From assembly GCF_000518285.1 (NCBI RefSeq), contig NZ_JADH01000012.1, forward strand, positions 1-49,125: 49,125 nt of DNA, given 5' to 3'. Positions 8,237-30,594 of this stretch are shown piece by piece (positions within the stretch are counted from its first letter, which is position 1; each line of letters begins with the position of its first letter). Position numbers and translations under genes: made by a program. This DNA comes from Williamsoniiplasma lucivorax ATCC 49196 (GTDB taxonomy: Bacteria > Bacillota_I > Bacilli_A > Mycoplasmatales > Mycoplasmataceae). The notes below the pieces were generated by a model, which saw only the letters and a list, made by a program, of their open reading frames with translations, made no database searches and was not told the origin of the DNA.

Positions 8237-8261
8237 TTTGCTCCTGAAGAAGTATTCCATC

Positions 8262-8354
8262 AAAAATGCCTACTCAAATAATTGAGTAGGCAAAATAAAA
8301 TGTCTGATTGAATATCTTACATTCCTTTTTTGCCTCTCTGGACTCAATTAAAGG
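8262..8354 (-). promoter_or_regulatory. PyrR-dependent transcription attenuator
   Basis: On the minus strand, 8345-8331 reads GAGTCCAGAGAGGCA, which matches the conserved PyrR-binding loop (ARUCCNGNGAGGYU) of Bacillus pyr leaders at nearly every position. It sits in a stem closed by CCTTT and AAAGG. Downstream lies an intrinsic terminator: a perfect 11-bp stem (8267-8277 with 8282-8292) followed by five T. The terminator's 5' arm can instead pair with the TTGAGT and GGC of the binding loop, giving the antiterminator. High UMP should thus shut down pyrRBCDFE. Confidence 0.93.
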
Positions 8355-8370
8355 ATTACTTCCAAATATT

Positions 8371-27660: not shown

Positions 27661-27678
27661 TCCTAATGGATTTTTTTT
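27659..27678. terminator. Weak terminator shared by ktrA and the DUF4430 gene
   Basis: A 5-bp stem AATCC/GGATT with loop TAAT, extended by the A and T runs around it, with eight T on the plus strand. Confidence 0.6.
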
Positions 27679-28227
27679 ATGATGCTCATTTTGTATATGT
27701 GAAATCAATATTTACAAAATCTACTAGAAAAATATCTCCTAATCCAACGCTAGTTCCAGTTGTGTTAGCATCCACTTCTCAAAAGATTCCTCATGTTGGT
27801 GGACTAGTTGGCCCAGTTTTGCTTGAAAGCCCATTAATTGTAGACACATGCCAAAATTATCAAAACCCACTTTTAATGTTTCTTTATTTGCTTTAAAGTA
27901 ATCTAAAACTGTTTCACCAAATCATTTAGAGTCTAACAATTTGTTAAAATTTAGATAACCATCCTCTCCCTCTTTAATTGGAGTTGCAAAACTAGTTGGT
28001 TGATTGTTTACATCTACCTTTTTAAATGTTCTTAAGACTAATTTGGTTTGACGATCTTTTAGTTGTGATTTTAAATTATGATATTTTATAAACGCAAATG
28101 CTGATAAAGCAAAGGCGATAACAAGCATAACGGCCATAATAATAATGGCAATTTTAAATTTTTTATTAGCTGGTTGTTGTGGTGTATCACTTGTTGGTGA
28201 TGATGTTTGAGTTGATTTAGCTATCAT
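27677..28227 (-). pseudogene. DUF4430 protein gene with a frameshift
   Basis: The first frame (from ATG 28227) gives a Thr/Pro-rich start, a membrane anchor (about residues 25-48) and then FGETVLDYFKAN, matching the neighbour gene at 28267. Near 27847-27850 the similarity switches frame: one base is missing. The second frame then gives VSTINGLSS, GIFWEVDAN and FLVDFVNIDFTY, matching the neighbour's INGLE, YWMYESN and FLVDFILIDFTY, and ends with TAA at 27677. Unshifted reading stops at TAG 27739 with unrelated residues. It is either a recent pseudogene, a sequencing error or, less likely, a recoded gene. The intact product would be a surface-anchored transcobalamin-like domain. Confidence 0.75.
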
Positions 28228-28266
28228 TTTTTATAGTTCCTTTTTATTTATTGTTTAGCTTTGGTT

Positions 28267-28776
28267 TTAAGAAGGGGTGTATCTTTCATATGTGAAATCA
28301 ATCAAAATAAAATCTACAAGAAAGGTGTCATTCAAAGATTTCATACCAGCCACATTGCTTTCATACATTCAATAGTCTTTGTTTTTACTATCTGTTTCAA
28401 GACCATTAATCCCATCTAGAAATAACCCAATAACAGGGTATCTAAGGTTCATTTTGATTTTTTCATCGGTTCTGTTTTCTCATAAATAATCTGCAGCAGT
28501 TTCACCAAATCACTTAGAATCTAATGTTTCACTAAATTCTAAATATCCTGGTTCATTTTCTAAAATACGAACTTTATAATTTGTTGGGTTGCCTTGTTTG
28601 TTAAATTTTTTATGACTTCTCATCACTAATTTAATTGGGCTTCTGTCTTTTATTTGCGATTTAAATTTCTGAAATTGAATAAAACCAAAGGCTGTAAAAG
28701 CAAATCCAATCACAAGAATGATAGCCATAATAATGACAGCAATTTTAAGTCCTTTGTTCGATGGCGGGTTTGTCAT
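28267..28776 (-). CDS. Membrane-anchored DUF4430 (transcobalamin-like) protein
   Basis: A 169-residue protein with one N-terminal membrane anchor (about residues 10-33) and an outer domain. The second half has the DUF4430 pattern: a FGET start, a hydrophobic strand followed by D-G-I-N-G-L, an aromatic YWMYE strand, and the closing FLVDFILIDFTYE. DUF4430 resembles the C-terminal domain of transcobalamin, and in Firmicutes such proteins often sit near cobalamin-regulated transporters. Here it overlaps the ECF S-component gene by 32 bases, and a cobalamin riboswitch heads the unit. A role in capturing a corrinoid at the surface is an inference. Confidence 0.8.
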
Positions 28777-29326
28777 TTTCGATATCTCATTTCTTTTCTA
28801 TTTTTCATGGTTTATTAAAAATTCTTGGCATATAAATATTCATCACCTTCATCACTGGAACTGTGAGAGCAACACCAACCAACATGTTTGCAACCCCATG
28901 AACAAGATCAAAAGTAAATCCAGCAACTCAATAAGCCATTGCTCCATTAAAGCCATAAAAAAACATTCTCACTCCTGTATTTAATGTTCCAAAAAGGAAA
29001 CCAAATAATGTCATAATAATCACCGCAATTCATCAGTGTTTTAAAATGCTTTTTTTAAAAAGAGAACAAATAGTGACTAGTAATGGTCAAACTAACATAT
29101 AAAAGACTCATCAATCACCAAATCCATAAGTGACTAGTTCTAACAAATTAAAACTCATTACAGAAAGAATAACGGCTCAGTAAGGCATATAAACTGCCCC
29201 CATCGTCATTAGTAAAGTAACAACTTCGACATTAGGAATAAAGGATAAAGCCAATTTCAATCCATAAATTAAGGCAATATAGACACCAATAAAAGCAATT
29301 CTGATTGTTGTTAATTTATAATTCAT
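28745..29326 (-). CDS. ECF-type transporter S component, probably for cobalamin
   Basis: A 193-residue integral membrane protein with about six hydrophobic segments, the size of an ECF substrate-binding S component. The N-terminal part (IRIAFIGVYIALIYGLKLAL, then a small-residue-rich turn before PYWAVIL) fits the ECF fold, in which early helices contact EcfT. A strong AAAGGAG precedes ATG 29326. The cobalamin riboswitch upstream indicates cobalamin, or a precursor, as substrate, like the riboswitch-linked CblT/CbrT group of Firmicutes. The shared EcfAA'T module is not in this window. The tail (from about residue 170) is polar and overlaps the DUF4430 gene. Confidence 0.85.
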
Positions 29327-29412
29327 AAGCTCCTTTGATCCTTTCTTGCTCCACATAAAAAATAAAAATGAATCAAAACCATTGTTATAAAATTTATCAC
29401 TTTAAATTTCTT

Positions 29413-29441
29413 AAATAAAAACACGATTTGAATAAATCGTG
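29413..29441 (-). terminator. Riboswitch expression platform, intrinsic terminator
   Basis: CACGATTT pairs with AAATCGTG around a 4-base loop, followed on the minus strand by TTTTTATTT. It lies between the aptamer and the S-component gene, so ligand binding should favour stopping here. An alternative hairpin (GGAAAAGTT with AACTTTTACC, about 29449-29480) lies just before it. Confidence 0.8.
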
Positions 29442-29501
29442 GTCGTTTTTTGGTAAAAGTTTATTTAACCAACTTTTCCTGACCAGGGAAAAGAATAATT
29501 G

Positions 29502-29641
29502 AGAAAAGTAGTAGGTATCCTGACTCAGATTCACTTCGATTATCACCTTCTCAGTTGCCCAATGGTTTTGATAATCAATCCTCTTTACAGTTGCTGGCAC
29601 AGTTTTGGCTTTAAACCAAATTCCCTTAACACTAGTTTTCT
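29502..29641 (-). ncRNA. Cobalamin riboswitch aptamer
   Basis: The minus strand carries the conserved elements of B12 riboswitches in order: AAGGGAA, GGTTTAAAGCC, GTGCCAGCAACTGT (the B12 box), then CATTGGGCAACTGAGAAGG and finally AGTCAGGATACCT. The ends pair as P1 (AGAAAA-C-TAGT with ACTA-C-TTTTCT). An ORF reading through this stretch is therefore spurious. It should reduce expression of the ECF/DUF4430 genes when cobalamin is plentiful. At about 140 bases it is a compact form. Confidence 0.92.
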
Positions 29642-29715
29642 GTTTTTATTACTGCTTAATTTTCTCACATTTTAAGTCAAAATAAAACCTAAGTTTCTGA
29701 AACGCTTTTACTATA

Positions 29716-30594
29716 TTATGAAAACATTTGCATCACAGATGTTATGTTATATTTATTTTTCAGTAATGACAGTGTTTCTTGATAAACTTTTTTTCTGTAA
29801 TCTTTTCAGGCTAAAGGTTCTGTTTTAAATAATGCAAAATCTTGTTTTTGTTGTTTAACAAATAAAATGTTTTTAATATTAGAAAAATAACCTTCGTCAT
29901 TATTAGCACCAGAAAAATTAAGTGGAAATAAATTATTTTGAAGACATAAAATATCAACTAAAATTCTGCCCGTTCTCCCATTCCCTTCAGCAAATGGATG
30001 TAACAATTCAAAATTTAAATGAAATAAATTAATGGCTTGATATTTTTCTTCATCCCTTTTAGCATCCTGTAAATCTTTATTTAAATTTTGAAAAATTTCA
30101 TCAACTTGATGTTCAAGATTTTGATAACCATAAAATTTGATTAATTCCCCATCAATCTCTTTTCATAAATCACTTTTTCTTAATTCACCTAAAACATTGT
30201 GTGTTTTAAAAGTTTGATCTTGCTTGTCTAAATATTGGGCAAATGCTTTAGTGAAATATTGGTTAAAAGGATAAATTGTTAAGTTGTTTAATAGTTTTTT
30301 GTTGATTTGAATACTAAAATCTTTGGTCACTTGAATTTGATCAAAATCAAAATTAACAAAATCTTGAGTAATAATTGTTTTGTAATTTTGAATTTCTATT
30401 TTATTAAAAAAACGGTAAAGTTCATCAATATTTAATGTTTCCAGGATAGTTCGGTCCAAAACATCGGGGATGGGTGATGAATAATAATAATTTTTATATG
30501 CTTTTAAAGTTAGGTTTTCATTTTCAATTTTATTTGTGTTATAGCCGATTTCTTTTTCAAAAAACCTTACTAATTGATGACTAATTTGTTTCAA
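29716..30594 (-). CDS. Fic-domain protein, probable AMPylase
   Basis: A 292-residue Fic protein. The full core motif HPFAEGNGRTGR (residues 199-210) is present, with the catalytic His and both Arg, so transfer of AMP (or another nucleotide) to a protein Ser, Thr or Tyr is likely. Near the N-terminus TNKIEN (residues 20-25) fits the inhibitory motif S/T-x-x-x-E-G/N of class II Fic proteins, placing regulation within the same chain. The start is probably TTG at 30594 with AGAGG before it; no ATG is available. It stands alone; no antitoxin partner is visible, in agreement with self-inhibition. The target is unknown. Confidence 0.9.

What the first reader, a model, noticed from the sequence alone, without database searches (positions are those of the whole stretch)
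27677..29641. Cobalamin riboswitch controlling an ECF S component and two transcobalamin-like proteins in a mollicute
The minus strand shows the B12-box elements in order, a following intrinsic terminator, then a six-helix S component and two anchored DUF4430 proteins in an overlapping unit. Riboswitch-linked ECF cobalamin transporters and DUF4430 proteins are known from Firmicutes, but mollicutes are reduced and I know of no well described B12 uptake locus in them. It implies a B12-dependent enzyme or another use for corrinoids in this cell.
Basis: partly seen in the sequence, partly recalled or inferred. Interest (0 to 1): 0.85.

Follow-up and report, generated by a model that had tools for sequence, protein, structure and literature searches.

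The report
B12 switch and uptake in mollicute
A wall-less bacterium with a reduced genome imports vitamin B12 under the control of a B12-sensing RNA, and a near-identical RNA precedes a metal-free enzyme for making DNA building blocks, so the cell probably uses B12 supply to choose between a cobalt-dependent and a metal-free way of making DNA precursors.

Summary
The finding is real. The minus strand at 29493-29651 is a full-length cobalamin riboswitch (RF00174, 71.1 bits, cut-off 31.5), followed by an intrinsic terminator, a CbrT-type ECF S component and two membrane-anchored DUF4430 genes; the second has a broken frame in this assembly. The S-component profile matches one solved structure significantly, 6FNP, the L. 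delbrueckii cobalamin transporter CbrT. The predicted DUF4430 domain resembles the cobalamin-binding beta domain of transcobalamin. The genome also encodes EcfA-EcfA'-EcfT, a BtuR adenosyltransferase and a B12-dependent class II ribonucleotide reductase (NrdJ). A second, near-identical riboswitch precedes nrdFIE, whose NrdF has the metal-free class Ie (VPK) active site. Most likely B12 shuts off both its own import and the metal-free enzyme while NrdJ works. Relatives fit: riboswitches also precede anaerobic nrdD and a deoxynucleoside salvage operon; within the family the nrdFIE riboswitch occurs in 8 of 10 genomes with intact NrdJ and 0 of 30 without. The uptake locus is of a known Firmicutes kind, and Streptomyces nrdABS is a precedent for the reductase switch. 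I found no earlier description in mollicutes in the open papers searched. Ligand binding and direction of control are untested.

The parts
29493..29651 (-). cobalamin riboswitch aptamer (RF00174)
   Evidence: 71.1 bits, full model; 231 of 269 alignment columns identical to the second copy at G000:C1:71626-71782 with flanks
29482..29486 (-). candidate L13 loop CUGGU, complementary to candidate L5 GCCAG at 29594-29598 (kissing loop)
   Evidence: read from sequence, coordinates counted by hand; L5/L13 complementarity exceeds shuffles over 60 mollicute riboswitches
29422..29441 (-). intrinsic-terminator-like hairpin followed by a T run, between aptamer and first gene
   Evidence: conserved in the second copy
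28745..29326 (-). CbrT-type ECF S component, 193 aa, code 4, start ATG after AAAGGAG
   Evidence: profile hit to 6FNP_A, E 1e-15; S-component fold, Z 9.8-14.9
28267..28776 (-). DUF4430 protein 1, single N-terminal TM anchor plus transcobalamin-type beta domain
   Evidence: PF14478 28.5 bits; fold match to transcobalamin, haptocorrin and intrinsic factor beta domains, Z 7.3-8.3
27677..28227 (-). DUF4430 protein 2, reading frame broken near 27850 in this assembly (N part 27739-28227, C part 27677-27847)
   Evidence: C part PF14478 14.4 bits, below cut-off; N part 56 bits to a mollicute DUF4430 profile that includes gene 1

Best explanation
The locus is a B12-repressible B12 importer. When cobalamin is scarce the leader RNA lets transcription through, and the cell makes a CbrT-type S component, which works with the genome's shared EcfA-EcfA'-EcfT module, and membrane-anchored DUF4430 proteins that hold or hand over cobalamin outside the membrane. 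Imported corrinoid is adenosylated by the BtuR/CobA-type enzyme and used by the class II ribonucleotide reductase NrdJ. When enough cobalamin is present the aptamer closes, the terminator forms and import stops. A near-identical second riboswitch before nrdF-nrdI-nrdE shuts off the metal-free class Ie reductase at the same time, so the cell uses NrdJ when B12 is available and the metal-free enzyme when it is not. Shown by computation: riboswitch identity, gene families, folds, gene order, second riboswitch, terminators. Inferred: the ligand, repression as the direction, transport, the DUF4430 role, and the enzyme choice.
For: RF00174 at both sites, 71.1 and 72.3 bits, near-identical RNAs including the terminator. 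6FNP/CbrT as the only significant solved relative of the S component; PMC5997447 describes the L. delbrueckii cluster nrdJ-cbrS-cbrT-pduO. Clostridial relatives at 30-41% identity: 10 of 12 tested carry RF00174 just upstream and 61 of 80 loci carry a DUF4430 gene. DUF4430 fold. EcfT/EcfA, BtuR 153.5 bits, NrdJ 533.6 bits with best solved match 1XJE, a B12 reductase. In sister species G209 and G207, nrdJ, the S gene and a DUF4430-like gene lie together on one strand. NrdF is VPK class Ie, best match 6GP2. Among 60 family genomes: S component in 19 of 20 with NrdJ and 1 of 40 without; BtuR in 20 of 20 and 1 of 40; nrdF riboswitch in 8 of 10 nrdE genomes with NrdJ and 0 of 30 without (p-values not corrected for kinship). 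In G196 NrdJ, S component and BtuR are all broken and both riboswitches have decayed while nrdF and nrdI stay open.
Against: No binding, transport or expression data. The antiterminator that would compete with the terminator was not resolved. A strict terminator scan finds a hairpin after 27 of 65 riboswitches, against 8 of 325 control windows, so many may act at translation. G180 and G209 have NrdJ and nrdFIE without a B12 riboswitch on nrdF. G314 keeps a riboswitch on nrdFIE without a detected NrdJ, and the NrdJ matches of G315 and G316 are partial. Five genomes without any reductase match keep riboswitches.
Confidence: 0.87

Rival explanations
1. The S component imports a corrinoid precursor or a different compound (cobinamide, another cobamide) rather than cobalamin itself.
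For: L. delbrueckii ECF-CbrT transports cobinamide as well as cobalamin (PMC5997447). Sequence alone cannot separate the two.
Against: The riboswitch family and an adenosyltransferase plus NrdJ point to complete cobamides. Cobinamide salvage genes were not searched for.
Confidence: 0.12
2. The locus is decaying and no longer functional in this species: the second DUF4430 gene is broken and the riboswitches are relics, as in some relatives.
For: Frame break near 27850. Decayed loci exist in G196, and weak riboswitches remain in G184, G190 and G191.
Against: Aptamer complete, S gene, DUF4430 gene 1, BtuR, NrdJ and ECF module all intact. The syntenic locus of G208 is intact with a single DUF4430 gene.
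Confidence: 0.08
3. The window is contaminant or misassembled clostridial DNA, where such loci are common.
For: The CbrT-DUF4430-riboswitch arrangement is widespread in Clostridia.
Against: Nine in-frame TGA-Trp codons in the S gene. Neighbours (gatAB, TrkH, a TrkA-like gene) are syntenic with the chromosome of sister species G208. The second riboswitch on another contig of the same genome is near-identical.
Confidence: 0.01

Closest known systems
ECF-CbrT cobalamin transporter of Lactobacillus delbrueckii (6FNP; nrdJ-cbrS-cbrT-pduO cluster)
   Same: S-component family, use of a shared ECF module, link to NrdJ and a cobalamin adenosyltransferase.
   Different: Riboswitch-controlled, BtuR/CobA-type instead of PduO-type adenosyltransferase, mollicute host with TGA=Trp. 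Whether cbrS is a DUF4430 gene was not checked.
Clostridial riboswitch-DUF4430-CbrT-like loci
   Same: Same RNA family and neighbouring gene families.
   Different: Order S-DUF4430-DUF4430 instead of DUF4430-S; host and code differ.
B12 riboswitch of Streptomyces coelicolor nrdABS (Borovok 2006, cited in PMC4991794)
   Same: A B12 riboswitch in front of a B12-independent reductase in a genome that also has NrdJ.
   Different: There class Ia NrdAB; here the metal-free class Ie NrdFIE, and in relatives NrdD and a reductase-free salvage operon.
2'-deoxyguanosine riboswitch of Mesoplasma florum (RF01510)
   Same: Riboswitch control of nrdFIE in the same bacterial family: 11 genomes without NrdJ have an RF01510 hit about 2 kb upstream of nrdE, where nrdF would start.
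   Different: Senses the product side instead of the cofactor. In G209 it precedes NrdJ and the B12 uptake genes.
Class Ie ribonucleotide reductase R2e-VPK (6GP2, M. florum)
   Same: D-V-H-P-K-H ligand pattern and 647 bits to 6GP2.
   Different: Placed behind a B12 riboswitch; I found no report of this.

Membership tests
Cobalamin riboswitch RF00174 | covariance-model score above the gathering score over the full model | tested here: met
   71.1 bits against 31.5, positions 1-189
Cobalamin riboswitch RF00174 | L5-L13 kissing-loop complementarity | tested here: met
   GCCAG/CUGGU here, ACCAG/CUGGU in copy 2; mean 5.6 pairs against 4.4 in shuffles over 60 riboswitches; relatedness not corrected, and at this site alone 5 against 4.8
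Cobalamin riboswitch RF00174 | binds a cobalamin and changes expression | not testable with these tools
   needs in-line probing and a reporter
CbrT-type ECF S component | profile relation to CbrT (6FNP) | tested here: met
   E 1e-15, only significant PDB chain
CbrT-type ECF S component | ECF S-component fold | tested here: met
   AlphaFold pLDDT 90.5; top 19 rows all S components, Z 9.8-14.9, next 6.0
CbrT-type ECF S component | ECF module in the genome | tested here: met
   EcfT 126.6 bits and two ABC ATPases adjacent
CbrT-type ECF S component | ATP-dependent cobalamin uptake | not testable with these tools
   needs transport assay
DUF4430 PF14478 / transcobalamin beta domain | PF14478 above cut-off, gene 1 | tested here: met
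   28.5 bits against 23.8
DUF4430 PF14478 / transcobalamin beta domain | PF14478 above cut-off, gene 2 | tested here: inconclusive
   frame broken; C part 14.4 bits
DUF4430 PF14478 / transcobalamin beta domain | fold of the cobalamin-binding beta domain | tested here: met
   Z 7.3-8.3 over 94-102 residues, next unrelated row 4.8; model pLDDT 77
Class II ribonucleotide reductase NrdJ | TIGR02504 above cut-off in own genome | tested here: met
   533.6 bits against 399.95 at G000:C1:112136-114028
Class Ie metal-free R2 (VPK) | three metal-binding glutamates replaced by V, P, K | tested here: met
   all 20 NrdF examined, own included; definition from PMC11846895
BtuR/CobA adenosyltransferase PF02572 | above cut-off in own genome | tested here: met
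   153.5 bits against 25.7

The most novel reading that the evidence does not exclude
In the Spiroplasma/Entomoplasma family, cobalamin riboswitches form one regulon that gates whichever B12-independent routes to DNA precursors a species has: the metal-free class Ie reductase, the anaerobic class III reductase, or a reductase-free operon (purine nucleoside phosphorylase, deoxynucleoside kinase, transketolase, KDPG-type aldolase, nucleoside deoxyribosyltransferase). Several species with no detectable reductase keep the riboswitch in front of that last operon, so salvage or a reductase-free synthesis of deoxyribosides would be their only source.
Probability: 0.55. Interest if true: 0.78.

Novelty: new variant of a known kind. 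Interest (0 to 1): 0.63.

Why it matters
A 2009 survey listed no cobalt or nickel transporter in 17 mollicutes and no use of either metal in 88% of them (PMC2667541), although class II reductase was later listed for Mycoplasma mobile (PMC4009431). A complete B12 uptake, activation and use chain in a 1.1 Mb genome gives such bacteria a testable vitamin need. The two reductases are both frugal in iron and manganese, one using cobalt in an imported vitamin and one using no metal, and a riboswitch appears to choose between them. The salvage operon behind the same RNA in relatives may be the genetic counterpart of the old observation (from memory) that deoxyribosides spare B12 in lactobacilli.

Tried and rejected
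Pfam and NCBIfam give no family for the window's S component alone; the profile against solved structures did. PduO-type adenosyltransferase: absent in 60 family genomes, while BtuR is present. QueG and B12-binding-domain enzymes: not found in own genome. Foldseek did not list 6FNP among its fold matches for the S model; its hits are other S components, so the substrate assignment rests on the sequence profile and gene context. I suspected that the long S proteins of G154 and G014 were S-DUF4430 fusions; neither Pfam nor my DUF4430 profile supports that. Searches for papers joining Spiroplasma and cobalamin riboswitch, or mollicutes and class II reductase, returned none; the library holds open papers only. 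The species of the window was not established.

Full report
Observation. Rfam's cobalamin model matches window 29651-29493 on the minus strand over its full length with 71.1 bits (cut-off 31.5). A terminator-like hairpin with a T run follows at 29441-29422. With TGA read as Trp (nine in the S gene) the S component runs 29326-28745, DUF4430 gene 1 28776-28267, and DUF4430 gene 2 starts at 28227. Gene 2 changes frame near 27850; its family-typical end lies at 27847-27677.

What the genes are. The window's S component hits no Pfam family on its own; 2 of 19 mollicute relatives weakly hit PF12822. A profile of the 19 hits one solved chain significantly, 6FNP_A (E 1e-15), which is CbrT of the L. 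delbrueckii cobalamin transporter ECF-CbrT (PMC5997447). The AlphaFold model (pLDDT 90.5) aligns best to ECF S components, 19 rows at Z 9.8-14.9 with the next at 6.0. DUF4430 gene 1 passes PF14478, and its model (pLDDT 77) aligns to haptocorrin, transcobalamin, intrinsic factor and a Ruminococcus protein at Z 7.3-8.3, the next unrelated row at 4.8. The word transcobalamin-like is therefore justified at fold level.

Where else it occurs. Relatives of the S component in Clostridia are 30-41% identical. Of 12 loci tested, 10 have RF00174 just upstream, and 61 of 80 loci have a DUF4430 gene. The uptake locus is thus a mollicute member of a Firmicutes arrangement. In the order, 43 of 320 genomes have an RF00174 match, 35 over the cut-off, and 37 have the S component.

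The B12 use. The own genome (1.10 Mb, 98.7% complete) has NrdJ, 533.6 bits with cut-off 400, best solved match the B12-dependent reductase 1XJE; a BtuR/CobA adenosyltransferase, 153.5 bits; and EcfT with two ATPases. No B12-binding-domain enzyme or QueG was found, so NrdJ is the only B12-dependent enzyme found in this limited search. In sister genomes G209 and G207 nrdJ, a DUF4430-like gene and the S gene lie together on one strand, tying uptake to NrdJ.

The second riboswitch. G000:C1:71626-71782 has a second RF00174 hit, 72.3 bits, 231 of 269 alignment columns identical to the first including the terminator, directly before nrdF-nrdI-nrdE. The NrdF carries V, P and K in place of the three metal-binding glutamates, as do all 20 NrdF proteins examined, nearly all of them behind such riboswitches, and its best solved match is the metal-free M. 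florum R2e 6GP2, E 5e-194. Class Ie is defined by this substitution (PMC11846895). So both reductases of this cell avoid iron and manganese, one by cobalamin and one by using no metal.

The rule across relatives. Downstream genes of 76 hits fall into uptake genes, nrdFIE, nrdD-nrdG (intact in G166, broken in G169), a FecCD-type transporter behind sub-threshold hits in three genomes with NrdJ, and a five-gene operon of PNP, deoxynucleoside kinase, transketolase, KDPG-type aldolase and nucleoside deoxyribosyltransferase (Pfam), with some hits in front of broken or unrelated genes. That operon is behind a riboswitch in nine genomes: four (G168, G172, G173, G174) have NrdJ as the only reductase found, and five (G165, G167, G170, G171, G176) have no reductase match at all. 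In the family, nrdFIE carries a strong riboswitch in 8 of 10 genomes with NrdJ and 0 of 30 without (p 6e-7, not corrected for kinship). G196 shows loss in progress: NrdJ, S component and BtuR in pieces, riboswitches at 45 and 38 bits, nrdF and nrdI open. In 11 genomes without NrdJ a 2'-deoxyguanosine riboswitch lies about 2 kb upstream of nrdE, where nrdF would start.

How it most likely works. Cobalamin closes the aptamer. The L5 loop GCCAG can pair with the L13 loop CUGGU (ACCAG/CUGGU in copy 2), and such complementarity exceeds shuffles across 60 riboswitches, though at this site alone it is barely above them. The terminator then forms and import stops; the second copy stops the class Ie reductase. 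NrdJ has no Rfam riboswitch in the own genome. Repression by ligand is inferred from the terminators, found after 27 of 65 riboswitches and 8 of 325 control windows, and from Streptomyces nrdABS, where adenosylcobalamin acts through a riboswitch (Borovok 2006, cited in PMC4991794). I could not identify the antiterminator.

Novelty. Each component is known. B12 riboswitch control of a reductase is known from Streptomyces, class II reductase was listed for Mycoplasma mobile (PMC4009431), and CbrT-type import is known from lactobacilli. I found no description of B12 riboswitches in mollicutes, of one controlling a class Ie reductase, or of one controlling deoxynucleoside salvage, in the open papers searched. 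Hence new variant of a known kind.

Noticed in passing
L109:7228-7292 (+), G209, same genus as the window: A 2dG-I riboswitch (RF01510, 52.1 bits, cut-off 51) lies directly before nrdJ, a DUF4430-like gene and the S component gene: a B12-dependent reductase and B12 uptake probably under deoxyguanosine control.
   Followed up: partly
G000:C2:59798-59859 and G000:C3:59343-59406: Own genome has two RF01510-like hits (52.1 and 50.1 bits) not next to its reductase genes; targets not examined.
   Followed up: no
L092, L074, L083, L037, L033, L071, L073, L080 (G165-G176 group): Cobalamin riboswitch before an operon PNP, deoxynucleoside kinase, transketolase, KDPG-type aldolase, nucleoside deoxyribosyltransferase, including genomes with no reductase match.
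   Followed up: partly
L096:1-9501 (G196): B12 system caught decaying: NrdJ in three fragments, S component, ABC ATPase and BtuR broken, both riboswitches degenerate, nrdF and nrdI still open.
   Followed up: partly
L098, L099, L103 (G291, G284, G293): Sub-threshold RF00174 hits (24-30 bits) before a FecCD-type ABC transporter in genomes with NrdJ: likely an alternative, BtuCD-like B12 importer.
   Followed up: partly
window 29716-30594 (-): Fic-domain protein (PF02661, 44.6 bits) ending about 65 bases upstream of the riboswitch, same strand, with a TTG start in the ORF call.
   Followed up: no
window 8259-8358 (-): PyrR binding site (RF00515, 57.8 bits, cut-off 54) in a mollicute.
   Followed up: no
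L064, L027, L041 and similar (cluster 5): A lipoprotein of about 330 aa without a Pfam family recurs behind B12 riboswitches, often with an ABC permease or a 122-aa membrane protein; possibly another corrinoid-binding or uptake component.
   Followed up: no
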